Assembly (NCBI GenBank): GCA_951799445.1
Contig: OX637288.1
Coordinates: 3,102,501-3,166,500, forward strand
Length of the DNA stretch: 64,000 bases
Source of the DNA: Pseudisothecium myosuroides
Lineage: Eukaryota > Streptophyta > Bryopsida > Hypnales > Lembophyllaceae
Direction: 5' to 3'
Below, piece after piece: positions 27,738 to 50,015 of the stretch. The notes under the pieces were generated by a model, which made no database searches, had not been told where the DNA came from, and saw only the letters and a program-made list of their open reading frames with translations. The translations under genes and the position numbers were made by a program. The stretch's first letter is position 1; the number at the start of each line of letters is the position of its first letter.

Positions 27738-27996
27738 AAAGAGGCGGTGAAATCCCCTGATGTTTTTCTATGGATCTGGAGATCTCCTGAAATAGGAACG
27801 CTTTGCATGCATCCAATTCAGCACCCACAAGTATGTCGGGGAATGCTTCATGTGCTTGGAAATGAAAGAAATCGTGTAGTTGTAACATAGCGGATCCGTG
27901 GTAGACTGAGTTCACATGATTGTATTGGGAGATCTGTGGACCGGGTTTCCGTAGTTTAGGCATCCAATTTACAGCACAACTGAAGTCTCAGAACCT

Positions 27997-29140
27997 ATCG
28001 AGAGATCCCCCGATGACCACCACTTGTTGCAAACAGGGCTCCCATCCCATATTAATCCCTCAGTGAGCGCTGATCTTCACATAATTCTATCGGGAGATCC
28101 CCTGACGGGGTGGTAGAATATGAGTCGGCTTCACTGACAATCTTGGTGTCGAAGTGGGGTACAATTTGATTCCTGTGCTAAAGTGCAAGTGATATCCGAG
28201 TTCATCAAGAATGATTCACAATAAGGCACGAGGGGGGCGATTCTTTCAAAGATATATGGTATCCCGAGAGTTCAAAGGAAGTACACACAAGTGGATTTGA
28301 AATTCAAACATCAGTTGACAATTACCAAATGAGCAATTGCTCTTGGGAATAAGGAGTCCGGTTCTAGGATTCACCGGGAGATCCCCCGACGGACTGCTAA
28401 TATAGTGGAGCTAAGGTAGTCAGGATATGACGAAGTGACAGGGGCATATCACAGTAACTTACTCACAGTGACATTTGAAGAACTGTAGACCACTGAGTCA
28501 CAGGTGCTCAGACGTTCATCATACATCTGAAGATGAATAACGACTAAGTAAACATAATATTCCATCCGAAATAATGACAGTAGTTTTAGTTTGTGTAAAG
28601 AACATCAAGGTTCTTTCACTACAAAAAATAGATTCGTACTTGGTTGAATGTCCGCTATATAATTGTGAAGATGCAAAACCTAGAAGACTAGAATTCCAAC
28701 AGTGTAATTGTGAGAGAAAAGAAATGCATTATTCAGACTCATTTGAGTGCATGTGTGACCCGAGCAATGTATTCTGTTCCGGACACAAACATAAACCACT
28801 TCCATTTCAGGAGACGAGAGGAAGAAAGACATCCCGCGCTTCTGCTATCAAGTCATTGCCCCCGTGCCGCACGCAAAGAATAGAAATCATAAACATATTA
28901 ATATATTCATACAGATTTATTTTACATATACAAGTCACAAAAAGCAGCTCTGAAAAACTAATCGAAGAACAGTCCTACTGACTCAACGGACTGTACTTCG
29001 AAACCCCCACTTGCGGCTGCGCTTACTGGATGTAGAATGCGTCGTGCAATATCACGATGGCAGTCGCGCCCCGCAGAATGCATCGTGACATCTCACGATT
29101 GCCGCGACGACCGACACAGTGCGTCGGGAGTTCCCACGAT
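27997..29140. repeat. Palindrome cluster at the left end
   Basis: 18-bp dyads start at 27997, 28089, 28373, 29041, 29082 and 29123. The outer three are the G-rich type (ATCGGGAGATCCCCCGAT-like). The last three are spaced exactly 41 bp apart, forming a triplet just after the transposase stop codon. A 135-codon open frame at 28574-28981 in this stretch has no recognised domain and is not called. Confidence 0.8.
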
Positions 29141-31193
29141 GGCAGTAGCGACCCCGGACTAGGCACTCAGTCATGGGTCCACCACGTTTGCCCGATTCAA
29201 ATTCACTAAGGCAGCCTCCCTACTCTTCTGAGGAATCGTCCGTGATTTTTGATCCACTCTCCTGGACCAATTCGCATACACTGCAGCACTCGCTTCCACC
29301 CAGGTGGGGGGACTTTTTTCAACAACCCATTTACCGTACCAGCAATTCCGATAAATCAATTCCAGACTTGTTTCGGAGTTATCGGGTCGCCAGTACTGAA
29401 GCAAGAACTTCCCGTTATTCACATCTCCTTCCAATCTGCATACAGTAGACAATGCTCTTCCCTGCCAAACAGCACATGATTCCGGGACTTCCGGTCTGAC
29501 AAGTACCCAACAGCTTGGTCGTATGTCTAGCCATGGATTACAGCTTTCCCTTAGCACTTCATTTGCAGGGCCGCAGTAAGGCTCCGGCTCCTCTTCTTCC
29601 TCCGGAATCACGTCCATGGGATTCACCGTCGATCCTGGGCGAGGGACTCCATTACGCGCCACCCTCCAATCGTGTTGTGGCCAGAAGCCTTCCACCAACT
29701 CCGGAGGACACTCGGGTAATGGTTCCTTCAGCTCATCGAGAACACACTTCCAGTAATCCACGTATGGACCGAACGCAGTTGCAAATCCCTCGCATCTAGA
29801 AATATCGTGTTGCCAGTACTGAATGTATTTCTCGAGTCCTACCAGCATGAAACCCTTGTTCAAGGTAGCTTTCCGCGCCGCTTCCCTTGCCTTCTCTTGA
29901 TTTCCATGCGGTATCGGAACCTCGCTGCCCCACATGGGCTTAAACGGAACAGGCTTTGGACAGCCGTGAGGGAGCATGGGCCGACCATTGCTGTCTGTCT
30001 TCCAAATGCGTTCAGAAGGTTTCTTTGACGTTAACCAGTTCGAATCAACTGCTGACCTTTTGAAGTTTATGACGGGGACCCCATCAGTGTCCACGTAGAA
30101 CTTGAACAGGTGCATCTCCCCCAATCCAATTAATTTTTCCCCGCGATCGCATTGGTAACCCTCCACGAACGACTTGAAATCCCCCACCTCTTATATGAAC
30201 TCCGGCATAAATGACAGTTCTTGGGACTGCATGAAGGCTTTCATGAGGTCAACGACGACAAAAGTGTTCTTGGTCTTCAGGGCTTTGGAAAGGTGGTTGA
30301 AATATGCATCGATGTCCTCGTGAGTGTGTCTGACTAGTAGAAACCCAACCTGAATTTCCTTGAATACACCTCGTGCAATGAGCAAGGATAAGAACGCCAT
30401 CAGATATTTGTTCTTGTTATCCTTGGCAGAGTTGTCAAGCTGAAGATATAAATTTTCAGGAAGAGGGGTACTTCCGACCCGAGCTCCAGGTTCGGTGAGG
30501 GTTAGGCTGTCCATACATCTAGACTTCCCTCTAAGTAGTGCCTCGAACAATGAGTTAGCCGGCGGATATGGAAAGAGGTCGCCTGCCTCTCGAATAGGTG
30601 GACCCTCCAGCCGGCGCAATAACCTCGCCAAAGACGAAATGGTGAAGTTGGAGTCCGCCGGCCAGCAAGATGGAGCATAATGGGCGTAAGCACCGTCACC
30701 ATGGCCATGAGCTACCATTCCAGTAACGCTCATCGGAAGCTGCCCCAAACCGGCCGTGGCCTTTGTTGTCACCCGGAGTCTGGGTAGAGCCGTCTTGGAT
30801 GTATCCATCTTATCGTGAATTATACATAAAATTCTTCGAGGATCTCGTTTGGATTCCTCACGCCAAGACGCATACAAACGACGGCAAGAAGCTTGGTGAT
30901 TCAGATGATGAGTCCGCTGCTTCACGAACTCCACGTACTCAGGGCTTCCTTTCGAAGACTTCAGAATAAACTGCTGTAGGTCGTCGCATGTAGTACATTT
31001 TGCAAACGAACTTCCGACAGGCTAAATAGAGACGTTGTTGAAGTGCTCCCGCTTGAGTCTACTAATAGTCGACTGGCTCACGGGCGGCAGACCGTAGTCG
31101 GCATTCAACTGCACATCCAGAATTGGTACGCTTAAGCATTGGTACGAGCAAAGGGGAAGGAATGCAAATGACAAGCAATGCACCATAACAGTG

Positions 31194-31239
31194 ATCGTGA
31201 TATCTCACAATCATTGATCTCGTCGGGAGATCTTGCGAT
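31194..31239. repeat. Two palindromes in the transposase intron
   Basis: Dyads at 31194-31211 (ATCGTGATATCTCACAAT) and 31222-31239 (GTCGGGAGATCTTGCGAT) lie inside the 165-bp intron (31273-31109), so they do not touch coding sequence. Confidence 0.7.
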
Positions 31240-32170
31240 CAATAAAGCAGTGACAAGAGATAAGGGGCACTACCTCGTTGGCGTCTGCTCGGACTCGTTT
31301 CCAATTTCTTCCGGGAGGAAGGAATTTTAGAGTGTCCGTTCGCCCGTTCCCGATGCCGCACATTTGGTGGGGCATTTGATCAGCATTCTCGTCAATAATG
31401 GCTTTCATAGTCCCAGCGACCTGAACAGTCCAAGCCCGCGGGCACTTAACCCCTGTGTTTCCGTGCGTCCCTGATACGACGCCGTCGTTGTACATCTCGA
31501 TGTAACTGTGGTAAGTGGACTTCGGGATGCCGTGAATTATGTGCCACGCCTTGCCACAAACATCAACTCCCTCTAGCGTGACGTATTTCCGCTTCCGCTC
31601 CCCGTACCTTTCGTGTAGTTGTCCTCCCACTCCAATCCCATATTCACGGCGCTCGTCAAACGACTTCAAGTAGTACTTCTGCCTTACTAACAGCGTGAAC
31701 TCCTGGTTATAATGCTGACAACACAGACGTCTGCAGCAATTCTCCGAGCTGACTTTCCGAATCTCCTCGTCTGCCGTTTGCGGGAGTACTGCGATTCCTT
31801 CAGTTCCAGATTGGGTTTGCGAACTATAAACCGGTATGGTGCTTTCATTCTACCTCCGAGGTAAGCAAGAGGGTCGTCCATATCGGGAATGGCGGCAAAA
31901 TGATCCACTGTCTCCTTCAACGAACGACCATTGGAAAACCAGCACTCCGAAATTGGCCACCTGTCGTGAGACATTATGGCTTCGGTGTCACCCACAAAAA
32001 CATCGAGGACTGTCACACCTATGAAACCTTCACCAAGTGTCTCCTCTTGGAAATGATCCTCCGGACTCCAACAAATGATACGACCCGAGGAAACGAGGAG
32101 TTCGTCGGCGTCCTTTCAATGCACATCAAGTCCAAACCAGGCTCCTTGACGAATATACGGACATGGATCC

Positions 32171-32188
32171 ATCGGGGGATCCCCCGAC
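32171..32188. repeat. Palindrome inside the transposase coding exon
   Basis: ATCGGGGGATCCCCCGAC lies in transposase exon 1, where the minus strand reads SGDPPMDP. This is the same SGDP-type peptide that the motif gives in exon 6 of the + strand gene. Confidence 0.7.
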
Positions 32189-32713
32189 GCTCTAACAACG
32201 TCGGCGGCTCTCCACAACACTACATTCTCTTGAACATCCTCTAATGTGTTCATACCCCTCTGACAAGGAAAGCATTTCAAATCCTGGAATTTTAATTTGA
32301 TAGAATGAGGTCGCACCAGAATGTAAATCCAAGGCTCAACAGGTATGGGCACACCCAGCCACTGGCCCTGGGGACGAACCTCTTTAACTATTCCTGATCC
32401 AACTTCACCGAATCCAGGCACAAACAGCTTAACCCAATCACCATTCACAAACGCTTCACATCCACCGGTGGAATCCTGTGATTCACCCTCTACATGCGTT
32501 CCGTCCACATACGGAACTATCGCGTCAGCAGCAGACTCACAGAATGAATCCATTGTCAGAGTGAGCTCTATCGAATCCCGTGGACGAGATTAAAACAATC
32601 CGTAAAACCTGTACATCATACATTCAAGGAGTTAGGCATGTCTACAGAAGAGCGTTGCATTCATGGCATTGTAACCTCACGACATGAAGGACAGAAGCAT
32701 CAACGTCTGTACA

Positions 32714-33394
32714 GTCGTGGGAACTCACGATCACACGGCAACGCAACATGAACAAGTGAATCTAGTTACTGTCAACAAGAAGTTTGAAAGCCCAGACGCG
32801 ATAGTGCGATCTCAAGAAGGCCGTCCCACAACCACTTGGAAGAAGCCAAGGCATCCAGGAAAACGTCGCAGAAGTTTAGAAGACATTAACCAAAGAACGT
32901 TCAGTACATCGTGGGATCCCACAACACTCTTGGCGCTTAATCACTTAAACCAGAGATCGCGGTATTCCAAGATCCTCCTAAGGGATCACATAGACCGCTA
33001 CAGAAATACAAATGAAGTAGTGGGTCAAACTGAATCACTCTGATGAGTCCCCGACATATTATCAATCAATCGTGGGATCCCACGAGTTCGGTATCCTGTA
33101 AAATCCGGAAGAGTGTTTGTGAACCCCCCCGAGTAGGAGAACCTGGTGCCAACCGAAAATGTGATCGTGAGATCCCACGATGCTTATACAAGATCGACAA
33201 GGAGTATGACGGTCATCGATAAGTAAGGCACCTAGACGTACACCAGGAAGGCCACAGCCAAGGTTCAATCGATCGTGGGATCCCACGACGAAATGATAGA
33301 ACATCCCTCGACTACCAGACCGCGATATCTCTATACTCGAAGACTGAGAGGTCTCGCCCACGCTCAATAAGCGGAGATCGTGGGATCCCACGAT
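32714..33394. repeat. Palindrome cluster upstream of the transposase gene
   Basis: Six dyads start at 32714, 32908, 33069, 33164, 33272 and 33377. The last four are perfect or nearly perfect (ATCGTGGGATCCCACGAT type) and are spaced 95-108 bp apart. The cluster lies just 5' of the transposase start on -, where it could control that promoter. An open frame of 119 codons at 32684-33043 is not considered a gene. Confidence 0.8.
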
Positions 33395-33447
33395 GCTTAC
33401 ATATGTTGGATATATACACGTATTCTACTGTCGTAGACCGACGTATT

Positions 33448-33690
33448 TACCGAAGATCGTGAAATTAGGTTTCCTGTCACTGTTTTCATGACATTCGACA
33501 CTCTATAACTATTCTCAGTTACTGTACAAAAATTCTCTACTTTTAAAGTGAATTTTGTTGTAATTCAGACTCCTGAACCTCCATAGGTACAATAAGAAAC
33601 ATTCTTAGAAGTAGTTGAATTTGATGGCTGGGTTTTCCTCATGTAAGTCCGCCTAATTTCTAACGCAACCTAATTTCACTACTTTGTGAA
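33448..33690. mobile_element. Diverged copy of the 28-bp-TIR MITE
   Basis: GTGAAATTAGGTTTCC near 33456 and GCAACCTAATTTCACTA near 33664-33681 match the ends of the MITE at 4413-4668 in inverted orientation. It lies at the left border of the palindrome-free block. Confidence 0.5.
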
Positions 33691-34730
33691 GATGTTCTGA
33701 CCGGTTGTCATCCACGTACAAGGTTCTCATATCAACTTGCCCTCAGGGCAGTGCCGTCCCGCGATTCAAAAGGAACCTTGATGTCACCACAGCATGGTGA
33801 TCCCTTAAGCACATGAGTTTTTCGCAAAATGAGACCAATGCGCGAAGAAAATTATCGCAGACTCCGTTTCACTTTCAATCTACGACATCCTCAATTTGTG
33901 ACAGAGTGCAGTGGCGTCAATTCGACTACAAAATCCTCAACATTCGGAATCGCATAACACTTGCAAGGGATGCATTCTTACCTTGCAGCAACTGGCTCGG
34001 TCAGAACTTCGTGCGCCTCCATGCCCACTCTGTCGCCAACGCCGGCAGACACCCACTCGCCACTCCGCAGCCTGCTTCGCCTGTTCACGTGTGCAATCGA
34101 AAAGAGCAAGCTCCAGGTTCTTTTCGGGTTATGAACCAGGTGGCTGGTTGGAATTCTTCAGCTCTGAATTCCCGCCGCGAATTTTGAAATCACCAAGCGA
34201 TCCTTGATTTCGAATGTTGGATGCGTTCTTGAATGCCGTGCCACAATCAACAACGGCTGGGGGGTACGTGCGGTCCTTCACTTCGGAAGTTGATTGCATT
34301 CTCGAATTCCGTGCATCTCCGACTACAAGGAGGGAGGGCGTGGGGCTCTTGACTTTCTGACTGGAACTTCGCAAATCCAGGCTTCACTGAACTTCCGATT
34401 CTTCACTGAGATTTTGAAATTCGCCGCATTCAAGGATGGTATCGTTGCACCGTTTTCTAGGAGTCAATGATGCTTTGACCAAAGCGGATCAAACTCTGAA
34501 GACTTTCACTTGACAGAATGTCACACGCTTCCCCGATCAATACTCGGAATTCTTCCCCTACACGACCTGATTATACGTATCCTACAGAAACGAACTGTAC
34601 CAAATCTCGTGAACCCAAAAGCTTGAGCACCTGAAACATGTGGAACACCTCACTTACAAAAAGAATCAACAAAAATTTTGAACTCTCGAATGTTCATATT
34701 TGTTATTTTCTATTCCAATGAATGCAATCT
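33691..34730. other. Interior of the transposon, no gene recognised
   Basis: Moderately GC-rich. Repeated short words (GAATTCCG/GAATGCCG types) occur around 34160-34310. Open frames of 98-124 codons on + (33813-34207) carry no recognisable domain. No palindromes of the 18-bp class. Confidence 0.4.
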
Positions 34731-34930
34731 TAGGGTCTAGGGTCCACAGTCCACGGTCATAGGGTTTAGGGTACATGTTGTAGTGTAGTGTTCACGGTTT
34801 CAAGGTCATGGTTCTTGGTTTCAGGGTTCAGGGTTTAATAGGGTTTAGGGTATACAGTGGCAGCGCTTTACATTAATGTTTTCAGGGTCTGCAGTTCATG
34901 GTTTACGGCTTTTAGGGTTTAGGGTATTAT
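34731..34930 (+). repeat. Degenerate telomere-like TTTAGGG patch
   Basis: Several TAGGGTTTAGGGT units, with many GGTTT/GGTC variants between them (for example at 34768-34780, 34836-34850 and 34912-34925). The plant telomere unit is TTTAGGG. This is an interstitial, decayed array and may reflect break repair or an inserted repeat. Confidence 0.6.
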
Positions 34931-35183
34931 GAAAAATGAAAATGATGCTGATTATTTGTTTCCAATTTTTTCCTCAATTAAGTTTACGTCATCTCAGACT
35001 GGGAACATATAAACTTAAAATTCAATCTAACTCAATATTGCTAATTAAAAATGTCAGTTAACAGATTGATTTCATATATAATTCTTGTTATGTAGTACAA
35101 CATCCTATGGTTGAATATGGGACTTTACGGATTAAACAATGATTGACACAATTTTTATTTCATCTACGAATTTTTAAATAAAG

Positions 35184-35344
35184 CACGAGGGGCTTTTTTG
35201 CGTTTCCCTCTCTCATTTTTTCCTGCGTAAACAGCAATCCATGACTTCTCCTTGTGTCACAATCCGTTGACACAATGAAAAGTCATAAGATTGTTGTTTA
35301 CATAGGGGAAAGTAAGAGAGGGAAACGCAAAAAAGCCCCTTGTG
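35184..35344. mobile_element. 161-bp hairpin MITE
   Basis: Ends CACGAGGGGCTTTTTTGCG and the inverted CGCAAAAAAGCCCCTTGTG, pairing for about 30 bp, with further pairing inward (GACTTCTCCTTGTGTCA with TGACACAATGAAAAGTC). AAG is found directly outside both ends, so a 3-bp target duplication is possible (PIF/Harbinger-like), but that is weak evidence. Confidence 0.65.
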
Positions 35345-35689
35345 AAGGACTTTGGATGTGCAATCATGATGGAACAAATAACAAACTGAACCATTTATTT
35401 ATTTTGTATTTTAAATCTCAGTCTGAATGATTTAATGAGTTAAATGCTTTCAAATTTGTTAATGCACTTTGACGGGTGATGAATGCTTAAACCTGGAATC
35501 ATGTCATTCATGAGAATATTGTAGGTCATGCAATCTTCATCTGGATTTTTGAAATGATCAAACGTGGTATACATCTACATCATTATTTGACAACAATGTA
35601 CGTAATATTGTTATTTGTTATTGTTATTTGAACAATCTCCACCGATGTGAAACAAAAAATCGGGAATGAAATGCGTGATGGCTTGAAAC

Positions 35690-37965
35690 GGCTTAAATAA
35701 TATTATTTTAAAAAGTCAGGAAATTTCATACATGCATGCATAAAATTTGATTTAGAAAAATGTAATTGCTCCAACCTTAAATTCCACCACTATTTTCTAG
35801 TCTTGCCCGTTGAAAAATTCTAATTCACATGAAAATAAAAAAATTGGGAATGAAACGGGCCTTGCCATTGAACTATGGCTTCATTTTAAAAATGTCATGG
35901 AATTTCACACGTGCATGCATAAAATTCTACTATGGAAGTTGGAATTGCTCTCAGGATTTAGATTCCACCACTATATTCACTTCTTGCCCATTGCAAAATT
36001 CTAATTCACGTGAAGAAAATAAAATTGGGAATGAAACAGTCAGGCCCTGCCATGGAATGGCTTCATTTTAAAAACGTCATGGATGGTTCATACATGCATG
36101 CATAAAATTCTATTGTGGAAGTTGGAATTGCTCTTATAATTTAGATTCCACCACTATAATTATTCACTTCTTGCCCATTGCAAAATTCTAATTCACGTGA
36201 AGAAAAAAAAATTGGGAATGAAACAGTCAGGCCCTGCCATAGAATGGCTTCATTTTAAAAACGTCATGGATGGTTCATACATGCATGCATAAAATTCTAT
36301 CGAGGAAGTTGGAATTCCTCTTAGGATTTAGATTCCACCACTATAATTATTCACTTCTTGCCCATTGCAAAATTCTAATTCACGTGAAGTAAAAAAAATT
36401 GGGAATGAAACGGGCCTTGCCATGGAAATCAATGGCTTCATTTTAAAAATGTCATGGATGGTTCATACATGCATGCATAAAATTCTATCGTGGAAGTTGG
36501 AATTCCTCTTAGGATTTAGATTCCACCACTATAATTATTCACTTCTTGCCCATTGCAAAATTCTAATTCACGTGAAGTAAAAAAAATTGGGAATGAAACG
36601 GGCCCTGCCATGGAAATCAATGGCTTCATTTTAAAAATGTCATGGATGGTTCATACATGCATGCATAAAATTCTATCGTGGAAGTTGGAATTCCTCTTAG
36701 GATTTAGATTCCACCACTATAATTATTCACTTCTTGCCCATTGCAAAATTCTAATTCACGTGAAGTAAAAAAAATTGGGAATGAAACGGGCCCTGCCATG
36801 GAAATCAATGGCTTCATTTTAAAAATGTCATGGATGGTTCATACATGCATGCATAAAATTCTATCGTGGAAGTTGGAATTCCTCTTAGGATTTAGATTCC
36901 ACCACTATAATTATTCACTTCTTGCCCATTGCAAAATTCTAATTCACGTGAAGTAAAAAAAATTGGGAATGAAACGGGCCTTGCCATGGAAATCAATGGC
37001 TTCATTTTAAAAATGTCATGGATGGTTCATACATGCATGCATAAAATTCTATCGTGGAAGTTGGAATTCCTCTTAGGATTTAGATTCCACCACTATAATT
37101 ATTCACTTCTTGCCCATTGCAAAATTCTAATTCACGTGAAGTAAAAAAAATTGGGAATGAAACGGGCCCTGCCATGGAAATCAATGGCTTCATTTTAAAA
37201 ATGTCATGGATGGTTCATACATGCATGCATAAAATTCTATCGTGGAAGTTGGAATTCCTCTTAGGATTTAGATTCCACCACTATAATTATTCACTTCTTG
37301 CCCATTGCAAAATTCTAATTCACGTGAAGTAAAAAAAATTGGGAATGAAACGGGCCTTGCCATGGAAATCAATGGCTTCATTTTAAAAATGTCATGGATG
37401 GTTCATACATGCATGCATAAAATTCTATCGTGGAAGTTGGAATTGCTTTCAGGATTTAGATTCCACCACTATTTTTACTTCTTGCCCGTTGAAAAATCCA
37501 TCTTAACGTGAATTAAAAAAAATGGGGAATAAAAATATTGGGCCCTGCCATGAAATGGCTTCATTTTTAAAATGTCATGGATGGTTCATACATGCATGCA
37601 TAAAATTCTATCGTGGAAGTTGGAATTCCTCTTAGGATTTAGATTCCACCACTATAATTATTCACTTCTTGCCCATTGCAAAATTCTAATTCACGTGAAG
37701 TAAAAAAAATTGGGAATGAAACGGGCCCTGCCATGGAAATCAATGGCTTCATTTTAAAAATGTCATGGATGGTTCATACATGCATGCATAAAATTCTATC
37801 GTGGAAGTTGGAATTCCTCTTAGGATTTAGATTCCACCACTATAATTATTCACTTCTTGCCCATTGCAAAATTCTAATTCACGTGAAGTAAAAAAAATTG
37901 GAAATGAAACGGGCCCTGCCATGGAATGGTTTCGTTTTAAAAATGTCTGGCAATTTCATGCATAA
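35690..37965 (+). repeat. Tandem array of ~188-bp units with CACGTG and CATGCATG boxes
   Basis: About 12 units. The central ones repeat at exactly 188 bp (CATGCATG at 36280, 36468, 36656, 36844, 37032, 37220, 37408); edge units are 177-190 bp and more diverged. Nearly every unit holds TTCACGTGAA (G-box palindrome) and ATACATGCATGCAT (RY/Sph box palindrome). A 71-codon open frame recurs in each unit, but 188 is not a multiple of 3 and the frames overlap end to end, so it is not taken as a gene. Central units differ by only one or a few bases, so the array has been homogenised or expanded recently. Confidence 0.9.
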
Positions 37966-37973
37966 GACAATGC

Positions 37974-39146
37974 ATGTCGATATGGAAAAAAAGGTACAAG
38001 TTCAAAATACTCCGCTCATGAAGTGAAGAGGCATGAGCGGGAGAAGTCCATGCTACGTTTTTCCGAACTTACCACGTAACCTAAAAAGGTCCTCCTCCGC
38101 CTGCGGTTCATTCAAAGAACTCTCATTCCACAAATCATACATAAAACATTACATGTCGGTATCAAAAAAAGAATGTATAAGTTTTTAATCTTCCGCTCAT
38201 GAAGTCATGAGCAAGAAAAGTCCATGGTACGTTTTCCAAAATTGCGATACATATTACATGTCGATTTAAAAACAAAAAATTGAAGTTGTAACTTAATATT
38301 AATTTTTTTTTCATAAATTGAAGATCAATTCTGAACGTCCTTTGTTTGACATTTTTTTTTAATTTCCATTTTTTGCAAGTAATTCCAAGATCATGGGCGG
38401 CTGGGCTTGGTCACGTACTTTGGAGAACTGTCTCTAGATATGCTCCAAAACACAAGTAAATTAAATAGATTAACACCTAGTATGCCCCTAAAACCGCGGG
38501 CAATCACGCTCTTGTCCACATCTATTCAATGATCATTGCAAGACAATTAATATAGAAGACAATAAGATAATTTAGATATTATTTCTTCATTACACATTTG
38601 CCAATCATGTTGATTGTATACATGAAAATGATTGCCTAGGAGATGAATGAGAAAGAATTATATAGGACAATCATCAACAATGTTCCCTGTACTTATGTAA
38701 TCGTTACAGTCATCTCTATTTAATTAAATAATTTGGACTAATCATTTTCTAGAAAAATGACACAAGTGCAAACTAGAAATCAAAGTTCATTATGTTAAAG
38801 GCATATTTAGCGGCTTGAAAAAAAAAAATAATCATCGAAACCAAAGGTTAAACCTAGAAATCAATATAGCAATCTATGAAATTAAACCGTTCATGATTCG
38901 TAACTAATGTTTGCATGGGCAGAGTATTTAAAATAGTAAAACTACATTTTTTTTTGTTAAAATTAACTCGTACAACATCATGCATGATTTATGGAATGAA
39001 GGGTCTTTGAACCGCAAGACCGAGGGTTTTTTTTAGGTTACGTGGTAAATTTGGGAAAACGTAGCATGGACTTTTTCCGTTCATGACTCTTCACTTCATG
39101 AGCGGAGTATTTACAACTTGTACATTTTTTTTCCATACCGACATTT
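37974..39146. mobile_element. Inverted-repeat element next to the tandem array
   Basis: Left arm about 37974-38118 and right arm about 38998-39146 are inverted copies (shared blocks: CTCCGCTCATGAAGTGAAGA, CCATGCTACGTTTTTCC, CCACGTAACCTAAAAA, GCGGTTCA). A third, direct, partial copy of the left arm is at about 38150-38270. No coding frame. It starts where the last degenerate array unit ends. Confidence 0.6.
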
Positions 39147-39149
39147 AAA

Positions 39150-39415
39150 ATAGTAAAACTAGCTTGCCTTATTTCAACAAAGTTACTTTACAAGCCATCA
39201 AAGTAATTAAATAAACGTTTCTACAATTATTTTTATTTGTAGACATGGAGTTTCGAGAGTTCCAATAGCAACAATGTGCATAAAAACGAATAATGAATAA
39301 ATAACGAATAGTGCATTCTTATAGAGAAACAAAAAAAATGTTTGTAGTAATTATTGAATGTCATGAAATTAGTGAAGTGCAAGTGTGCGACCTAATTTCA
39401 ACATTTTGTGTAATG
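39150..39415. mobile_element. Diverged copy of the 28-bp-TIR MITE
   Basis: Shares the GCCTTATTTCAACAAAGTTA-type start and the ACTTTACAAGCC block with 4434-4480, and ends in GCGACCTAATTTCA. Marks the right border of the palindrome-free block. Confidence 0.5.
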
Positions 39416-39447
39416 AGTGATTATTTAGCTTAAGACTTCTAGTCAAG

Positions 39448-39480
39448 CCCTCCTCATGATGTCAGTAATCATGAGGAGGG
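39448..39480. repeat. Perfect 13-bp hairpin upstream of the + strand gene
   Basis: CCCTCCTCATGAT and ATCATGAGGAGGG pair around the 7-nt loop GTCAGTA. It sits just before a GC-rich, pyrimidine-rich region that looks like the promoter/leader of the gene starting at 40719. It is not of the 18-bp palindrome class. Confidence 0.6.
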
Positions 39481-40718
39481 TGGGCAGTCATGACCTGCAC
39501 CGTCTTGCACCTGACAGCGCCACGTCAGCAGACTCCCCCGCCGGTTTCCTCTCCTCTTGGTCTCCTTTCCTCCCCACGACGTCTGCTTGCCACCCTTTTC
39601 TCCCGACATCGTGTGCTTCTCCGTCTTCCTGATTTCGTGCGCTTCTCCGCTTTCCTTCCTCGCGAGTTCATTCTGGTTGTTGCAGTCCGTTAGTTTGGTT
39701 GTCTGAAGCTTGGCATTTGGAGTGAGTTGGGTTGTGTGGAGTTTCTTTGGTTGGCGGGGCGTTGAACTTCTGTTTGCGGAGTCGAGCGCGGCGAGGGACA
39801 TTAGAGGAGCGTATTCAAATTTTGCTGGCGGAGTGTGTGTGCGCGGAGAACGAATTTTTGTGGCGGAGTGCGGTAGTGCGTGAAGCATTTCCTAGCGAAG
39901 GCGGTGCGCAAGTGTCCGGACCTGTGCGTGAGAAAAACAACACGGTGCGGGACTTCACCCACCTCATTGAACAGGTTAGTTCATCGTAGTCCAACCTCAA
40001 AACCTGCATTTTGATTTTGTAGTTCTTTGGCGGTGAGGTTCAATTATTATTTGACTTCTTCGTTGTAGAATTGTAATCGCATGGAGGTGTGCATTTGCTC
40101 TGGAGTTTAGCTTCTAGGCTTGGAAAGAATTGATCCCATTCAAGCTTGTCAAATGAATCTAGTACATGGATACAATGGCTGTATGGCACTCGCCCTCCTT
40201 GCAGGTGTAGGCTCTCCTCACGCATTGTAGTTCACGGTTCATCACTGTAGACCCTAGAATGGTAACCTTGATGTAGTTCACGAACTAGAGTTCAATGTGT
40301 ATGGACTGCTGTGAGTGTTTGAATTGAAGCAAAGTGAAGTAAGGAACGGGAATGTTGCTCCCAAAGAGGAATGGAGCAAAGATTCATTGTATATTATTTA
40401 GTTAGACAGTCCTCGTTTGTGAATGATATTAGGAACATGGTTTGTGCAGGGATTTTATGACTATGATCAGACACGCTTGTTTTCTGTGCGATAGGCTACT
40501 TAGTCCGTCACTTTAGATTTAAGTTTATCTTCTCTTCAATTAAATTCACTTGGCTAGTCATGAAGAAACAAGTTAGGAGTTTGTGATTCTCAGTGAATGT
40601 CTGATTGAAGTTACAATTTCTTCTGCATTTGAATTTCATGCAGCAGTCTTTCGAAGAGCGGAAGGGCATTTTCGTAGTAGCTGAAAACAAGGCCGGACCC
40701 GTGCAAGCGGAAGCTACG
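39481..40718 (+). promoter_or_regulatory. Promoter and 5' leader of the ParB-like/HAD gene
   Basis: GC- and CT-rich from 39481 to 39980. A frame open from 39726 to the donor at 39974 (CAG-GTTAGT) joins in phase to the exon at 40644, but it has no ATG after its upstream stop (TGA 39723-39725), so it is read as 5' UTR unless a further 5' exon exists. The acceptor at 40641-40646 is CAGCAG (NAGNAG), which allows two isoforms differing by three bases. Confidence 0.5.
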
Positions 40719-43700
40719 ATGGCAGCAGCTCCATCCCAGCGTACAGCAGACCTCCCAGTTTGGAAGGACCCGTAAGTTACTTTGAACTGTATTCTCATTA
40801 CTTTCCGTTTCTTGCTTGCAATGTCTACGTTATAAACAATGCTAATAATTAGGGTATGGCTGTTTGCAATTGCATTGGTACGCACTTTGCTGAAAACGAG
40901 GGTAGTAGAGCCTCTGTCATAGTCGCTGTTATAAACATGGCCGAGAAATACGGTAGTACATATGCCGAGAAGAATACACGGTAATGAGTACGTGACTCTG
41001 TTACCGCGGATAGTGACCCTAAAACCGTGCATCGTGGGATCCCACGACAGGGCAGTCCCTGTGTAGATTTGAGCATCGTAGGATCCCTGACTTGAAACCC
41101 TAGCCGCCCACCACTGCGCGGCCACACGAGTTTTAGGGTTTGTAGCCCATCGTGGGATCCCCCGATGATAAGATGTGAAGACGCAATCTAAACCCAGACC
41201 ACATATTAGGCACAGACCAGGCAGCGGATTAGTAACCCATCGTGGGATCCCCCGATGGAGGATAGTAAAGACCGCGCCTGACCTAGACTTAACAATTAGA
41301 AGGCCACCTACATAGAGCATTCAAGTACTAAACCGTCGTGGGAAATCACGACGAGAAAGTCTAGCGTGGGTAGAGAAATTGAGATGCAGGCAGGTTAACA
41401 AATAGCGCTGATTATGTGAACAATCAATCTTGGGATCCCACGACAGACAGTAGTTTCACAGATCATCACCGATCACCTTCTAAGATATTCCAATATCCAT
41501 TCTATGTTATTTGTTGCTGTCGTCATATTCCGGGACGCCTTCAGTTAGTGAGTTGAGATGCAGTAACCTCCTGCCCACTACTGTCCGTAAATGTAACCGA
41601 TCGTGATATCCCACGACAACGGTAATTTGTGAAACCAGGTCATCAAAATGATCACGAAACCATTCCTTCTCTTTCATAACATCCGTCGTGGGATCCCACG
41701 ACTAAGAATAAAAATTAAAGTTAGAACGGGAATAATATCGCACCACCATCATTCTGCTCTATCGAACAATGTGGAAACTAACATCTCTTTCTACCATGCT
41801 GCAGTGAAATGCAAGTCGTTGAAGGTCTTGAAGAACTGACACCCAGGAAGCTTGGTACCTTCATCGACTGCTACATTACGTCTTTGGAGTACACAGGTCC
41901 ACATCCACCACAAGCCTTTTTCCGATGCGACGAGCAGATTACGCATTGGGGAATCGCCTGGAAAGCAGAGAGTGACGGCTCCGCCACTATTCTTCCCACG
42001 CTGGTGAATGGGACAATGGGGCACCCAACTGCCGGACTGAAGGTACTAGAAATGAAGGGGCTTGACGACGACACAGCGCTCCTAGTTGTAGAGGAGAAGG
42101 TTCCCCTTTCCGGAGAGATCATAACGTTTGGGCTGATCCTTGACTACGCGAAGTTCAGCCTCACTCTGTGCGAGTCTGTGACTGCAAGGTCACATCTGAT
42201 GTGCAAAGACACGTCTAAGCCTCGGTGGAAGCCTAAGGAGCTCAAGAACCAGTGGGACATAATCCTGGAAGACTTACGAGATACGAACGCTCCCCCCCAA
42301 GCCGTGACAGCGGTTGCTCCCACGCCGTCCCCCAAAAAGAAGACCAGGAAGAGGAAGTCTGCAGTTGGTGCTCCCGGGGACGAAGTTGAAGCCGCAGCTG
42401 GGACATTTGGAAAGAAGAAAAAACCGGATACCCCGCTTCTGCTTCACAGGGCTGTGGCTCTAGGGGAGGCAGACGTGAAGAAGATGACACCGGAAGAGAT
42501 GAATAAGATGAGGACCCTGTACGAGAACTCTTTCGGTGGCCTGTACAAATGGGGCAGGAAACCAGTCTGTGACAGCAAAGGAGAGCTCATCCGCGTGCAC
42601 TATGACTATCTGCACCAGGCACCTGTAGCACTGCTCGTGTACAGGGGAATTCAGGCAGAGCGGCTTGATGCACTGACGAGGAAGGCACGAATCACACCTG
42701 ATTATGACTCGGAGAACAGAGTCATAATAGTGCTTCCCCTTAAAGCGGGACCCTACGGCCCGGCGAAGGTAGTGTCGCACTATGAGAAGCAAGCGCTGAA
42801 GAAGGAGATCTTTGAAAACCCCAAGACACACTACTACATTATAGGGGGCCAACACACTGTCCAGGCATTCAAGGACCTGATTAGGCTTGGTGTGATTCCC
42901 GAGAAGGACAAGAAGCTCGCCTCCACCTTCAATATTTTACCTGTGTGGACGGACAAAGATCACCACGGAGACCTAGTGCACTTCTCGCGAGCACTGAACC
43001 AAGATGTCGTTGGCGAACAGAAGGAGCAGAACTTCACGAAGCAGCTGCTGAACGCAAGAATCAAGTGGCGGAGTATGGGAAGTCCACAGCCAACAATATT
43101 GGGCAGATCACACTCAGTAGAGTACAATGTAAGAATGCTGCTGGAGTTGACATATTTTTTTTTAGGGGTCATCAGAGTGCGCTCTACCTAACCATCGTGG
43201 GATCTCCCGATGGTCCTGCACTACACCTTTGACCTTCACTACGTTAGAACCTCCTCATCGTGGGATCCCACGACTAAGTCCTGGCTTTGAGATACGGGAT
43301 AGTTCTACGTTAGAATGAGGAGATCGTGATATCCCACGACGTTAAGTTATGAAATACCAGATGTCGCTAGTTTAGTCTTTTGTGCTGGGGGTTCAGTGCG
43401 TGGTGTTTTCAAATTGTGCATGTAGAAGATAGTGGCTCATCGTGATATCCCACGACTTTAAGTTATGAAATACCAGATGTCGCTAGTTTAGTCTTTTGTG
43501 CTGGGGGTTCAGTGCGTGGTGTTTTCAAATTGTGCATGTAGAAGATAGTGGCTCATCGTGATATCTCACGACTGCCTGTTGCCTAAACGACTTCCTCGTG
43601 GTAACTGATTGATCATGGGATCGCACGACTGTTTATTGGACTTCTTGTGTTCACGTGGTCTGTCTACGGATCGCGTATTGACTGTTACTCCTTTGGTTGG

Positions 43701-46700
43701 CAGGCGTTTCAGCCGTCGGTGGCATCAATATTTGCGGGAGCAAAGGCAAAAGACATCGCCGAACTGAGAATCCCTCTACTCTTCCTGGAGAACGATGCTG
43801 ATGTTCAGAGATGGATCAAGATAGAGGAGAGATTCATGGCAGGTCTTCTTCCCGACGCGGCGGGGCTGGTCGATGTATCGGGGAGTACGGATCGCAAACC
43901 GTTGGCGGCAAACGACTTCAAGCCCCTTTACGGACTTAGACCGGAGGACATCAATTTCCTTGCGGATCAAGTCGAAGCCCAAGTTATTAGCATGAAGACC
44001 TCCGTCGCAAAGTCGAAATCACAGAGAGGTGGAAAATGCATTATCTCTCTTGCAGACGCCGGCGCCAAAATTCGGTTGGTCAGGGCGATGAAGAACGAAC
44101 TCTTGTCACACTACAAGGTTCATCTGCTGTCGGCGAGGAGGGTGGAGTGCGAGCCTTACCCGGACTCTTTGTGGGTCGAGTTTGCGACGGAAAGGAACAT
44201 TGAGCACGAGGATGTGGAGATGTGGGTGAACAAGGCAATGGAAACCCCTGCTGGAAAGAAGTGGTTGCAAGATCGGACGAAAAATCTCAACAGGACATCC
44301 GACCCAACTGACCTTCCGCAGTCGGTGATCCAAATGTGGGAGTCGTATTTCAAGCTGATGGCGGAGGAGGAATCGGTGCAGGCAAATGCACGTGGTTTTT
44401 CAGAGCACTATCTCTGTAAAACCATGGACAAAAGCAGCTGGGACATCAGCGCCACCTTGGCGGCAGGGGACGTCATAGCGTGGAGGGGAAAGAAGAAGCA
44501 GCACCTCTACATCTGGTTCATGTTCGAGTCAACGTCCTGCGGGTGTCGCGCCAAAATTCTTGAAGAGCGGAAGTTGAAGAGACTCTTTGACGCTCTGGAG
44601 TACTATGATCCGCAGGACCAGACAATCGTAGCCCGCTCTGCCGCCGTTCTCCTCACAGATGCCGAAGGGTTCCATATGATTGTGGCTCACATAGAGAGAC
44701 GAAGGATGGAAGTCAAAGCTAGGTTGTGGGACTGGCACGTTGTGAACTACATGGCAGGGCCCGAAGACTTCTTCCCTCAAGCTCCGGCCGGAGACGGGTA
44801 CAATGTCTTTGTTGTCTTCATTTTTGGGCACAACGAAGAGCACGAGCGGCGGACTTGCTTCAAAAGCTTCTTCCCGGGATTGGACCGCCTCACTCAGGTG
44901 TACAAGGCGGAAGATATGCCGGACGACTACCCTTACTGGCGTCGGCAGCAGATGCCGTATCTGAAGATCAGCAGTGCGTTGATTCTATTCGAAGGACTAG
45001 CTTGCAGCGACTATGTCTTTGTGAATGTCAACGGGGGTCCGGAGTTCACATATCTGGGCTTGGTATGCACTACAACGATTGTCTTTTCTTTTGTTCTTCT
45101 GATAATCTCATTTTGATTTCGGGGATTTGAATGTCACTAATTTCCGGTTGTTGTATTTCAGTATTCGGAAGGTGGTAAAGTGCTGGAAGTTGTCGATTCA
45201 GCGGAAGCGAAGACGTTAAGTCAGGTCTTCGCCAAGCAGATTTGGGATGACAAACATGCGCAGGTGGCACCCCTTCCTCTTCCGGAGGCCGAACACGAGG
45301 ACGAGGAAGTTGAGAGTGATGATGAAGATGCTGTACTCGAAGACATCACCCAATACAGACCGGGCTTAGGAACAAGGTCGGTTGAGCACCCTAACGTTAG
45401 TGTGCATTATTTGCTGAACCATCGTGATATCTCCGGACGTTGGGCAGCGTATATCTCTCACATGCTAATCTGGGAGGGCAAACTGAGCTCAATTGTGGTG
45501 GGATATTGCCTTTCTCGCAGGCGAAATCTCCGACTCCCTCCCCCCGGCGAGAGCAGCTGATTGATCCACCAAGTGCAGCAGAGGATGCAGAGGAAGTTCC
45601 CGAAGTTCATTCGGCGCAGGCGGAGCTGGCAGATCTGACAGAGGAGCATGAGAGTAGTCCAGAGCCGTTACCAGCCGAACAAATTGTAATTCCAATATCG
45701 AGCGGGTCGTCAGGCGAAGTGAATTCAGGGATCCAATTAACGGACCCAAAGATATCCAAGAGGAAGCCGCTTAAGATGCCGGTCAAGGAACCCGACACCG
45801 CAAAGGATACTGGGAGCACAAAGGCGGCCAAGCAAGCGCGGAAGACAGCAGGCGAGAATCGGAAGGGGGGGACCTCCAAGTGGACTCCAAGTAAGTCGTT
45901 GGTGCAGTGCAAACAGTCGCCAGCGAAATCGACTGAGAGTCCCAATCCCGAAGCATCAGTCGCGGCAGAAGCGCTTCTGACTTGTGCCTTGGGACCGTTA
46001 CCATCAAGGCCTGACAAGTCGACTCAGCCGCAACAGGAGGATGCGCAGGCATCTCGTGCTTCAGGAGCTGACAGACAGCTTCCGGACCTCGACTTATTAA
46101 CCCTGGAAGACACTCACCGACCAGCATCGGGGGATCCCACGATGACGATCGAATCACTGGTCAAGAGCGGGGAGGATGCTGCCGACCTCAGCGAGGGGAG
46201 GAAAGAGTCGAAGGGGGATGATGACCACCTCGGATCGAGGGATCCCACGACGAGCCATGCATTACCTGTGGAGACTGTGTTAGCTGTCTCTCGACGTGGT
46301 GCAGGGAAGGATGACCAAGGCCGAACACCGGGACCTGAAGGATCGGGGGATCCCACGATCTTTGAAGAGTCAATGGTCTCAATTCATCATGGCGATCCGG
46401 CAGAGAGCGAGGGGGGTGAACACCAGGAAGGAGTGGTTGCATTGTCTTCATCAAGGGATCCCACGACTGTGCCAGAGCGATTGCTCCCGCCGATGGGCAT
46501 CACGGTTGCTGTACTGAACAACACCCTTGTTGACTTGGTCCCCCTGAGTCCCAAACCTGTTCCTGGAAGGAAGAGTATACCTGTCATAGGGCGGGCGAAG
46601 ATTGTCGACATTGCTTCACTGGCCTCCAGTGTTCCACTGGAGGTTGCAGGAGAGGTGGTTCCTGATGACGGTGAGTGCAATTCTGACGAAGTGCTAAAGG

Positions 46701-47943
46701 CCATACCTTACGAGGCCGAAGAAATAATGAAGTTCTGTCTTGTTGATCGTATGAGAGCATTTGGTCATTTACCGAGTCTAAACCACTATGGGAAGAAGCG
46801 TCTCAATACCAACAAGGAAATTCATTTGGAATCCGTAAGGCGAGCGAACCGTTTCCTTTACAAGCCCGTCTTTAAATGGATATTTCAGGATGGTCCGCGT
46901 GCAGTGTATGATGGAGGGGATCCACCTGATGCAGACGAAGAGTGGGAGGCAGTGGAAGGCGGCGTTAGAGGGAGGAGGGTGGTGGTGCCTTCGAGCGACG
47001 ACGAGCTTGAGCCGGGATCTTTGAGTGGTGACCAAGGGGAAAGAGGACCAGTGAGCGCCGACGAGAGAGGAAAGGGGCAAATGCTCGTTGAGAGGAGGGG
47101 GGAAGGATCAGTGAGCGGTTGCGAGAGGGAAAGAGGACGATTGGGCGACGAAAGGAGGGCGGAAGGGTCGCCAGCTTGTAGCGTCCGAGCTCCCGCAGGT
47201 AACATGCCTACATTATTGTCAATGTACATACGAGATAACGAATCTTGAATTGGCCGGTCACTGACTCTGTGCTTCTCTTGTATTCTGCAATTTTTCGAGT
47301 GCCTGCTGAACCGGTGGCGAAGTCGTCGAATCAGGTAGAAAGGCGGTGGTATTATGTGGTCCTTGACCTTAATGGAGTTCTTGTTCACAGGTCATTCAAT
47401 GAGTTGAACAGACGCGTCGTAACACTTCGACCGAATGTTGGTCAGTTACTTGACTTTGTACACAGACATGCAAACATTGCATTCTGGAGCAGTATGACAC
47501 CGGCAAATGTGACGAAGGTATTGAATCAAATGCTGCCGGGGACGTCTGTTAAGGCGAAGGACGTGCCTGTTCTCACGCAGGAAGACTGCACAAAGTTGTC
47601 CTACAGAGACCCCAAACACCCGGATAGGCCCTACTTCCTCAAGGATCTAAATCACTTCGCCACTAAGCTGGGTTTGAGGTCAACCGAGAATGTTCTCCTC
47701 GTTGATGACGATCCACTTAAGAACCTCCTGAACGATTGTCATAGCGCCATTTTCCCCCGCAAATTTGAAGGGGACTGGAAGGACCAGTACCTTGTGGGGG
47801 TGCTCAGTCCTTGGCTCGGAGGTCTATTTAAGTCACAGGAAGCTGTGCCGGCGTATGTCAAGAAGCATCCGCTCCACAATGGTCTGCCACCGGCGGTCCC
47901 GTTGACCAGACCGGGGTCTGACATTTTGAGGGCAGTAGTTTAG
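40719..47943 (+). CDS. ParB-like / acidic linker / FCP1-type HAD fusion protein, 1763 aa
   Basis: Exons: 40719-40771, 41805-43128, 43704-45062, 45162-45395, 45521-47198, 47300-47943. All junctions are GT-AG and all phases agree (5292 nt). Residues about 270-370 resemble a ParB/sulfiredoxin-like fold: ALLVYRGIQAERLDAL, then VIIVLPL, then YYIIGGQHTVQA (GGQHT at 365-369, comparable to the DGQHR/GERR active-site loop). A basic KKKTRKRK stretch (195-202) may be a nuclear signal. Exon 4 (453 codons) is not recognised. Exon 6 is acidic, low complexity, with four DPT motifs 36 residues apart. The C-terminus (about 1566-1740) is NIF/FCP1-like: DLNGVLVH (nucleophile D1572, but N1574 where classic enzymes have D), WSSMTP, FLKDLN, VDDDP (1684-1688). 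The DLNG variant also occurs in plant NIF-like paralogues, which suggests capture of a host domain. Function inferred: DNA-binding/processing protein of the transposon. Confidence 0.78.
41031..41702. repeat. Palindrome cluster in intron 1 of the coding region
   Basis: Eight dyads start at 41031, 41075, 41149, 41239, 41335, 41427, 41600 and 41685, all inside the intron 40772-41804. Several are perfect (41685-41702 GTCGTGGGATCCCACGAC). Spacing is mostly 74-96 bp. Confidence 0.85.
43194..43629. repeat. Palindrome cluster in the next intron
   Basis: Six dyads start at 43194, 43257, 43323, 43439, 43555 and 43612, inside intron 43129-43703. Three are the GATATC-centred type. Confidence 0.85.
43323..43554 (+). 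repeat. 116-bp tandem duplication carrying one palindrome per unit
   Basis: 43323-43438 and 43439-43554 are almost identical (one clear difference near the palindrome). Each begins with ATCGTGATATCCCACGAC, and a further palindrome starts at 43555 exactly where a third unit would begin. A very recent local duplication. Confidence 0.85.
45421..45438. repeat. Palindrome in the intron 45396-45520
   Basis: ATCGTGATATCTCCGGAC, a partly decayed dyad in the 125-bp intron of the + strand gene. Confidence 0.6.
46126..46467 (+). repeat. Four palindromes at exact 108-bp spacing inside coding exon 6
   Basis: Dyads start at 46126, 46234, 46342 and 46450 (each ends GGGATCCCACGA[T/C]). Spacing is 108 bp each time, that is 36 codons. 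They encode SGDPT, SRDPT, SGDPT and SRDPT. The sequence between them is not visibly conserved, so the shared part is essentially the palindrome. Confidence 0.9.
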
Positions 47944-47971
47944 TTTTGGTTTCTCTTCCTCGACGGACTTC

Positions 47972-50015
47972 ATCGTGATATCTCACGATCTCCTTTTGGC
48001 GTGCATATTATTGCTTGTAGCTTAAAACTCTTGAACATACTGTAAATATTGTAAATGCATTTTCGAAATACTGGACATTCTTTGTTTGTAGGAGGCATTG
48101 ATTCTGCCTCGGTAGTAGATGTGAAAATAAATTTTTTTCCTAAATGCCTTTGATTAAGATAATTATGAGTTCGAAGGGATCACCTCGACCTTGACTATTA
48201 ATCCGCGTGCATGCACATCTAGAGATCTAATGGTATACCGTGGAAGTAGATTCTATCGGTAGATCGGACTGTTCTGGACATTTATCCTTGTCTTTTAAAT
48301 CTAATGTGAATGCATTTCCGGTGCATGACCCTCACTTAGAATTGTTTTCTTACTCTTCGTTCGCAACTTTAATCTAAATTTGGTTTTGAAATTGTTTATC
48401 ATATTACTCGGAAGAGTGGAATTTTTTGAACACCTCATTAGATTTTAACACTGGGCGTCATCATCTTGCGCGGCAAGCTTCATCAGGAGATCGCACGATA
48501 CGACGTGACGTGTGAACATTGAAATGTCGTTTCCGTCCTTGTATTGTCTCGTGATATTGTTTTTGTACTTGTGGATGACAGTGAAGTTGTAGTTGTGCTT
48601 CTACTGTTTGTTTGGGAGTTCTCCTGCAGTTCCGGTTTGGTGAAGTACGGATTTGAAATTGATAATTTTGTCCTGTGTCTTCGGCTTGATCGGAAGATCT
48701 CACGATCATTTTTCCTTGCATGGAATTATTAGTCTTAGGCGGATTATGTAATGTCCATTTTTGTTGCTTCAATCGAATGCAATTGAATTTCTGCTGCGTA
48801 ACTTCCTTTGCTCGAGTATTTTCGGTCTTCTAATATGTCACCCTAAACCTTTTTTTGTATTTGACGCGAATTCTAAATCTGCATCCCTTGTTAGTGCTGT
48901 ATTCTGGGCTGCAGTGACACCGTAGAAATATTGCTAATTTCCTTGCACTATGCAGGAAATAAGACATTCAGTCGCTGTTCTTCAAATAACTACCCATGCG
49001 TATTTTCAATTAGCGGTTCTGTTGTATTGCATATTGGTCGGGGGATCTCACGATCAATTGACGTCGTTTCTGTATGTACATGTCTGCGTACTGAGGCTTA
49101 CTTGGTCTTTGCAGAAGGCGATGCTCTTAGTACTAACAGAGGATCTCTGCGTAAAGGGCGGTGTGGTGGATCTCCCACAGAATATCGTAATTCGGACCGG
49201 CTTCCGTGGTCTTCTCCGACATTTCGTTCAAGAAACTCACTGTGGTTTGTGGTCCGCAATGCAACCTTCAACACTGGCCGCTCTTCTTCGACGTATTCTA
49301 CCGCCGGAAATTCTGTCAAGGTTTCTATTTTTTGCCAGGTCTGACAATCCACGGAAGAACCAGGTGTATCCCCATCGTCGTGCAATAATGAAGACTGTCT
49401 TGAACATTCCTCGGACGCGCAGGGTACTCTTGAATAACAGTGTTGTAATGCTTGTCCTAGATCCTCTTGATTGGGAACGTCCGCACTTGCTTCGACCGGC
49501 GTTGCATGTGAGGGATGATGTAGATCCTGTAGAGTTAGATCGTCCGCACATTATAGCACCGCCTTTTGATTGGTCTTGGGCCCCCAAAAACATGTAGTTG
49601 GAAGTGGACTAGCTGGGTTATATATCACCTGTTTGTTGCATCCAAATGATTATATAAGTGGCGAATCCACCTTTTCTATCTGATTGTGATTACACCTTAC
49701 CAAATGTCTGTAATTGCATTATGTTGCTTCATCCATTCTTTTGTGTTATGTGATACTTTGGGAAGTATCTTCTGAGCTCTCCCGATCTGTGATGTGGCAT
49801 ATTAATGCAACCCCGGATACAAATGTACCGCTTACAGCAAATGTCGGAGTTGACATCATCTCAAATTCATTGATTTGTTCGAACACTCTATCCCGAAGGA
49901 GTATATTTCCTTGCATCGGGAAATCTCCAGACCACTTAGCATCCCAAAGCGATTTAAATCTCCTTTGAACGGCATTACGGACTCATTGTACATACCATCG
50001 GGAAGATCTCCCGAT
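47972..50015. repeat. Palindromes in the right part of the transposon
   Basis: Dyads start at 47972 (ATCGTGATATCTCACGAT, perfect or nearly so), 48482, 48689, 49037 and 49997 (ATCGGGAAGATCTCCCGAT, 19 bp, odd-length centre). The outermost is only 39 bp inside the right TIR and is G-rich, like the outermost left copies. Confidence 0.8.
48950..49597 (+). pseudogene. Decayed second FCP1/NIF-like domain
   Basis: Frame open from ATG 48950 to TAG after 49597 (215 codons). The convincing part starts after a TTTGCAG acceptor-like site at about 49117: MLLVLTEDLCVKG resembles the FCP motif 1 segment (LLVLDLNGLLV) with the catalytic Asp gone; GLLRHFVQETHCGLWSAMQP parallels the QLLDFVHRHANIAFWSSMTP segment of the neighbouring gene; LVLDPLD sits where VDDDP would be. 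It is either a partial duplication of the C-terminal domain of the upstream gene or an independent capture, now probably without phosphatase activity. The first about 55 codons of the frame, including a palindrome at 49037, may be intron or leader. Confidence 0.5.

What the first reader, a model, noticed from the sequence alone, without database searches (positions are those of the whole stretch)
27997..50015. About 39 copies of one 18-bp palindrome, all between the TIRs
The consensus ATCGTGGGATCCCACGAT recurs in intergenic sequence, introns and coding exons of this element only. Both arms vary together (TCGTGATATC, TCGGGGGATC), as if the symmetry itself is kept. This looks like a binding site for a dimeric protein encoded by the element.
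Basis: seen in the sequence. Interest (0 to 1): 0.93.

Follow-up and report, generated by a model that had tools for sequence, protein, structure and literature searches.

The report
Palindrome-studded transposon with ParB-like protein
A large jumping gene, probably of a plant, carries dozens of copies of an 18-letter mirror-image DNA site that look like docking sites for a protein the jumping gene makes itself, perhaps one whose predicted shape resembles bacterial chromosome-partition proteins.

The parts
27691..27694 (.). left copy of the 4-bp target-site duplication (GGGG)
   Evidence: read; 4-bp TSDs also in 5 of 5 MITEs and exact in 13 of 20 more
27695..27722 (+). left terminal inverted repeat ATGCCATATTTAACTACTTCTGGACTTT
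   Evidence: I15, 28 nt, 96%
27774..28390 (.). left subterminal palindromes at 27774, 27997, 28089, 28373
29041..29140 (.). three palindromes 41 bp apart, just 3' of the DUF7869 gene
29171..32589 (-). DUF7869 (PF25273) gene, likely the transposase, several exons; broken in this copy by three in-frame stops (ending at 32116, 31022, 30191) that 0 of 13 other copies share
   Evidence: E 2.3e-38 for ORF 30191-31021; splice sites by eye
31194..31239 (.). two palindromes in an intron of the DUF7869 gene (intron about 31109-31273, by eye)
32171..32188 (.). palindrome inside the first ORF of the DUF7869 gene
32714..33394 (.). cluster of 8 palindromes upstream of the DUF7869 gene (32714, 32801, 32908, 32956, 33069, 33164, 33272, 33377)
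33395..41030 (.). central 7.6 kb without sites, including a 188-bp x 11.4 tandem array at 35801-37926; region matched in L005, L011 and L016
41031..41702 (.). cluster of 7 palindromes upstream of the ParB-like gene
41809..43127 (+). exon 1 of the ParB-like gene; ParB/sulfiredoxin-like domain at residues about 259-410 of ORF 41782-43191, motif IIGGQHTV
   Evidence: start and donor site by eye
43128..43702 (.). intron 1 with 6 palindromes (43194, 43257, 43323, 43439, 43555, 43612); 43323-43573 is a 116-bp tandem repeat of 2.2 copies
43703..45062 (+). exon 2; its C-terminal half is modelled with an N6-adenine methyltransferase-like fold; no DPPY-type catalytic motif seen in the aligned members (by eye)
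45421..45438 (.). palindrome in a predicted intron
45521..47199 (+). exon 4, a long exon holding four palindromes exactly 108 bp apart (46126, 46234, 46342, 46450); the intervals between them are only 31-42% identical
47301..47943 (+). exon with NIF/SCP-type phosphatase domain (PF03031)
   Evidence: E 2.1e-15
47972..49054 (.). palindromes at 47972, 48482, 48689, 49037
49915..50015 (.). right subterminal palindromes: 49915, and 49996-50015 with one extra central base
50050..50077 (-). right terminal inverted repeat
50078..50081 (.). right copy of the 4-bp target-site duplication (GGGG)

Best explanation
The 18-bp palindromes are binding sites for a dimeric protein encoded by the transposon, most likely its ParB/sulfiredoxin-fold protein. 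Near the TIRs, and in MITEs that hold little more than TIRs and a site array, the bound protein would help pair the ends for the DUF7869 protein to cut. At the clusters upstream of both genes and in intron 1 it would regulate the element's own expression. This is the job TnpA does for En/Spm, done here by an unrelated fold. Shown: sites confined to the family in what was sampled, presence in MITEs, positions kept and arms changed symmetrically between families A and B, a ParB-like fold prediction. Inferred: that this protein binds the sites, that it dimerises on them, the end-pairing and autoregulation roles, and that DUF7869 is the transposase.
Confidence: 0.58

Rival explanations
1. The palindromes are bound by the DUF7869 protein (the likely transposase) itself, and the ParB-like protein has another job.
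For: Eight sites lie upstream of the DUF7869 gene, three just behind it and two in its intron. Many cut-and-paste transposases bind their own subterminal repeats (general knowledge).
Against: In families B and C arrays lie upstream of and inside the ParB-like gene, but those loci were fetched around that gene, so this is partly by choice. No DUF7869 gene in the 10 kb read left of one B copy. The DUF7869 protein was not modelled.
Confidence: 0.27
2. A host factor reads the palindromes, for example a transcription factor that the element recruits or a silencing protein.
For: Clusters sit upstream of genes and in intron 1, where host regulators would act.
Against: Families A and B in one genome carry different symmetric variants; one host factor would be expected to hold both to one variant. 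No sites outside elements in the window or beside the 20 sampled MITEs except next to L048.
Confidence: 0.08
3. The sites are a partition, centromere-like or replication device that keeps the element during division, not a transposition device.
For: The ParB-like fold and arrays of palindromes resemble parS clusters.
Against: The element is inserted in chromosomes with TSDs, and MITEs of about 220 bp carry the sites. A ParA-like gene was not specifically searched for.
Confidence: 0.05
4. The sites are neutral repeats spread by tandem duplication or gene conversion, kept by descent.
For: 43323-43573 is a tandem repeat; the family B array has a period of about 75 bp and partly conserved flanks; young copies and MITEs show no extra conservation at sites.
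Against: Conservation is highest in exactly the 18 bp of diverged B arrays, at 108-bp spaced sites with unrelated intervals, and between A and B at fixed positions with random flanks.
Confidence: 0.04

Closest known systems
CACTA (En/Spm) elements with TnpA/TnpD (PMC2613891, passages read)
   Same: Large TIR transposon with two products; short motif repeated subterminally; cis motif also in non-autonomous derivatives; TNPA binds the repeats, is required for transposition and regulates the element in both directions.
   Different: TIR ATGCCA, not CACTA; 4-bp, not 3-bp, TSD; DUF7869 and no Tnp2 domain found by Pfam; an 18-bp near-palindromic motif, placed also upstream of genes, in introns and in exons; candidate binder has a ParB-like fold.
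Bacterial ParB-parS, Noc-NBS and KorB systems (structures matched; PMC12704722, found passages and section 7)
   Same: ParB-like fold; short palindromic sites in multiple copies, clustered near the gene.
   Different: Eukaryotic transposon; GGQH in place of GERR; HTH and dimer domains not shown; methyltransferase-like domain downstream; sites in MITEs; ParA not searched for.
Phage and archaeal ParB-fold/methyltransferase fusions (PMC12704722, section 7)
   Same: ParB-CTPase fold joined to an N6/N4 or MT-A70 methyltransferase.
   Different: Here the methyltransferase-like part lacks a recognisable catalytic motif (by eye) and the gene sits in a transposon. A profile search returned 19 proteins at E<=0.01, covering 30-96% of the query at 33-63% identity, none named as ParB (only the 7993 best-word candidates were scored).
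Sulfiredoxin (Arabidopsis and human)
   Same: Same fold class; GG-x-H motif (the sulfiredoxin motif is recalled, not from a call).
   Different: Small stand-alone enzyme (general knowledge), not tied to DNA sites.

Membership tests
ParB (canonical CTPase clamp) | ParB/Srx N-terminal fold | tested here: met
ParB (canonical CTPase clamp) | GERRxRA box | tested here: not met
   the nearly invariant motif is IIGGxHTV; the GERR form is recalled.
ParB (canonical CTPase clamp) | helix-turn-helix DNA-binding domain behind the fold | tested here: inconclusive
   exon 2 is partly helical with modest confidence; 2 of 10 members hit an ASH2L-like winged-helix model at E 0.006; the spliced protein was not modelled.
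ParB (canonical CTPase clamp) | NTP binding and clamp sliding | not testable with these tools
   needs biochemistry
ParB (canonical CTPase clamp) | short palindromic cognate sites near the gene | tested here: inconclusive
   palindromes near the gene are there; that they are cognate is not shown.
CACTA / En-Spm | TIR beginning CACTA | tested here: not met
   ATGCCA in the window and in 5 of 5 palindrome-sampled MITEs.
CACTA / En-Spm | 3-bp TSD | tested here: not met
   4 bp: window, 5 of 5 MITEs, exact in 13 of 20 more.
CACTA / En-Spm | Tnp2-type transposase | tested here: not met
   only DUF7869 above its cut-off among 5 ORFs of that gene.
CACTA / En-Spm | subterminal repeats present in non-autonomous copies | tested here: met
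   17 of 20 MITEs carry the motif.
DUF7869-protein family | PF25273 domain above its curated cut-off | tested here: met
   132.1 bits against a cut-off of 26.
DDE/RNase H transposase | catalytic fold and acidic triad | not tested

The most novel reading that the evidence does not exclude
A eukaryotic DNA transposon runs a ParB/parS-type machine: a nucleotide-switched ParB-fold dimer loads at arrays of palindromes, spreads along the element, gathers both ends and represses the element's own promoters, and the protein and its sites diverge together in each family.
Probability: 0.2. Interest if true: 0.93.

Novelty: new variant of a known kind. Interest (0 to 1): 0.76.

Why it matters
It ties a ParB-like fold to a eukaryotic transposon and gives the candidate its DNA sites, with natural variants for specificity-swap tests. 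The ParB-fold survey of which I read passages and section 7 (PMC12704722) covers eukaryotes, but 'plant' and 'transpos' occur 0 times in its main text. Families A and B in one genome are a ready experiment on how a transposon's DNA-binding protein and its sites co-evolve, a question raised for CACTA subterminal repeats in PMC2613891. It also hints at a role for a branch of DUF7869 proteins; a search of the held library for DUF7869 found 0 papers.

Tried and rejected
Constraint at sites among 13 young copies plus the window: no signal. Conservation of site columns among 24 MITEs (L038 left out): none beyond the rest. Arm covariation: weak in the window alone, none in family B alone. Helical phasing of spacings: no clear period. 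Phage records: no match to the ParB-like ORF. Viral contigs: no relative of the ParB-like family or of the DUF7869 ORF, no exact 16-bp core. PDB sequence searches: best E 0.11 and 0.14, none for the profile. The idea that the central 7.6 kb is a private nested insertion was dropped because L005, L011 and L016 match it. TIRs of family B were not found in the stretch read. The central ApT as a general methylation target was dropped, because several family C sites lack it. In one search I had picked 12 of the 20 family B sites of L027; one search repeats the comparison with every upstream site above 13 bits. In one search the slices start one base late; one search gives the exact register.
Full report
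Observation. The window carries 26 matches to ATCGTGGGATCCCACGAT with up to 3 mismatches, where shuffles give 0.02. A matrix built from the sites finds 41 places above 12 bits, all between the 28-bp TIRs at 27695-27722 and 50050-50077 and none elsewhere; the best outside scores 8.0, and the matrix read backwards finds 1. Information content falls to background outside the 18 bp. In the 387.9 Mb genome the pattern with up to 2 mismatches has 2389 places against 4 for the reversed pattern.

Anatomy. The element is 22.4 kb with GGGG on both sides as a 4-bp TSD. On the minus strand lies a gene with the DUF7869 domain (E 2.3e-38). In this copy it has three in-frame stops that 0 of 13 other copies share, so intact stretches exist elsewhere. 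On the plus strand, from 41809, lies a multi-exon gene (splice sites by eye). The two genes point away from each other; eight palindromes lie upstream of one and seven upstream of the other. Six more are in intron 1 of the plus-strand gene, two in an intron of the minus-strand gene, others near both TIRs. Five of 41 are in candidate exons; four of these, in exon 4, are exactly 108 bp apart while the intervals are only 31-42% identical. The central 7.6 kb has no site and holds a 188-bp tandem array; L005, L011 and L016 match this region. The host is taken to be a land plant from the look of its flanking ABC-transporter exons (ABC transporter hits; the plant assignment is my recollection of such proteins and comes from no call). 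The organism was not identified.

Copies. The ParB-like exon gave 434 first-look candidates in the genome, of which 91 were scored, at 92-100% identity; 48 of the 91 have no stop (counted by hand). Of 20 loci fetched around perfect palindromes on C1-C4, 13 hold DUF7869-gene matches with sites at corresponding offsets, L011 holds parts of both genes, L014 a ParB-like exon, and 5 are MITEs of 202-247 bp with TIR ATGCCACATTTAACTACTTTTGGA and 4-bp TSDs. Among 13 young copies and the window, sites change about as fast as other noncoding DNA (0.0102 against 0.0126 per base), as expected for copies no longer under selection, so their positional agreement proves little. At several sites the commonest form among copies is more symmetric than the window's (31194, 31222, 32908).

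Sampling from the other side. The MITE TIR with up to 3 mismatches has 606 plus-strand and 593 minus-strand places, control 0 and 1. The listing shows 24 elements with a perfect TIR on C1; I fetched the 20 not fetched before. All 20 are 204-408 bp; 17 carry at least one palindrome above 12 bits (23 sites), 3 (L042, L050, L054) do not; flanks have none except two sites beside L048; the TSD is exact in 13 of 20. The 25 sites compare with 0.03 in shuffled loci. The 4 left out were L006, L008, L010 and L012, which carry it. These MITEs are relatives of one another, and in an alignment of 24 of them (19 of these and the first 5) the columns of the two L008 sites are no better conserved than the rest (0.74 against 0.80; TIRs 0.95, raised by the sampling). 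So MITEs show that TIRs plus the array make up what moves, but not that the array is needed. The first five MITEs carry half-sites and full sites mostly 20-24 bp apart.

Sister families. Searching the genome with a distant relative (P0006; 107 of 520 candidates scored) gave rows absent; I fetched 6 of these, and all 6 are family B: ParB-like exon at 46-49% identity and, by blastn, no similarity to the window around it except about 230 bp in one. Above 13 bits they hold 87 sites, 38 distinct, of the form ACCGTGATATCTCACGGT, mostly in a ~75-bp array upstream of the same exon, plus two in the intron of each. With every upstream site counted in three copies (16, 18 and 19 sites), mean pairwise identity is 0.82-0.89 inside the 18 bp, 0.53-0.72 left and 0.44-0.57 right. 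Against the window, B changes pair 2/17 in both arms. Shuffling arms over A and B together, pair 2/17 matches in 66 of 79 against 39.6 expected, 7/12 in 63 against 44.1, 5/14 in 60 against 52.6. These sites are related by descent, so the real weight is that of few independent symmetric changes. Within B alone there is no excess.

Positions. The first intronic site starts at the 69th base after codon 448 in A and in 6 of 6 B copies, and the site behind the phosphatase exon at the 32nd (A) and 31st (B, one copy) base. At these two places A and B are 72% and 83% identical in the 18 bp and 17-30% in the 30-bp flanks. Locus C (L031, found through P0011; ParB-like exon 46% identical to the window's) has 7 sites above 10 bits, four upstream and three in the intron, the first at the 72nd base. 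Four of the 7 have G:C at pair 5/14 in both arms, three have it on one side only, and none pairs at more than 7 of 9 positions. G:C at that pair also occurs in the window (for example 32171). C supports the architecture, and a symmetric variant only in part.

Interpretation. Conserved position with random flanks, a family-specific symmetric variant in the same genome, and presence in gene-less MITEs together point to a dimeric protein of the element, with likely roles at the ends and at the promoters. Which element protein it is remains open. I favour the ParB-like one, because its gene is surrounded by arrays in families A, B and C (B and C were fetched around that gene, which biases this) and because its fold serves palindromic sites in bacteria. 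It works like TnpA of CACTA elements (PMC2613891, passages), but the element is not a CACTA element: TIR, TSD and transposase domain differ. It is not filed as a ParB either: the GERR box is not met and a helix-turn-helix is not shown.

Changes after checking.

Limits. Gene models are by eye. Copy counts are lower bounds. Literature was searched in one open-access library; the listings (titles and starts of abstracts of the listed papers) showed no report of this element. From papers I read found passages of PMC10045372, PMC2613891 and PMC12704722, and section 7 of the last.

Noticed in passing
35801-37926: A 188-bp tandem array of 11.4 copies in the middle of the element; the region is matched in L005, L011 and L016, so it travels with the family.
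   Followed up: partly
46126-46467: Four exonic palindromes exactly 108 bp apart with unrelated intervals, all read in one frame (S/R-DPT).
   Followed up: partly
43703-45062: Methyltransferase-like fold without a recognisable catalytic motif, joined behind the ParB-like exon.
   Followed up: partly
47301-47943 and 48938-49597: NIF/SCP-type phosphatase exon followed by an ORF that looks like a second, degenerate copy (by eye; Pfam gave nothing for it). The phosphatase exon is also in the family B copy (46.6%).
   Followed up: partly
29171-32589: The DUF7869 gene of this copy has three in-frame stops that 0 of 13 other copies share, while the ParB-like exon is open.
   Followed up: yes
27700-27740 and 50030-50077: TCCAGAA repeats behind each TIR form short inverted repeats next to the ends.
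   Followed up: no
55503-56711: Nested inverted repeats of up to 299 nt outside the element, another mobile-element-like structure.
   Followed up: no
26517-26534: Perfect 18-bp palindrome TATTGTAAGCTTACAATA outside the element, unrelated to the motif.
   Followed up: no
L048: Two further palindrome sites next to the sampled MITE, apparently a neighbouring element.
   Followed up: no
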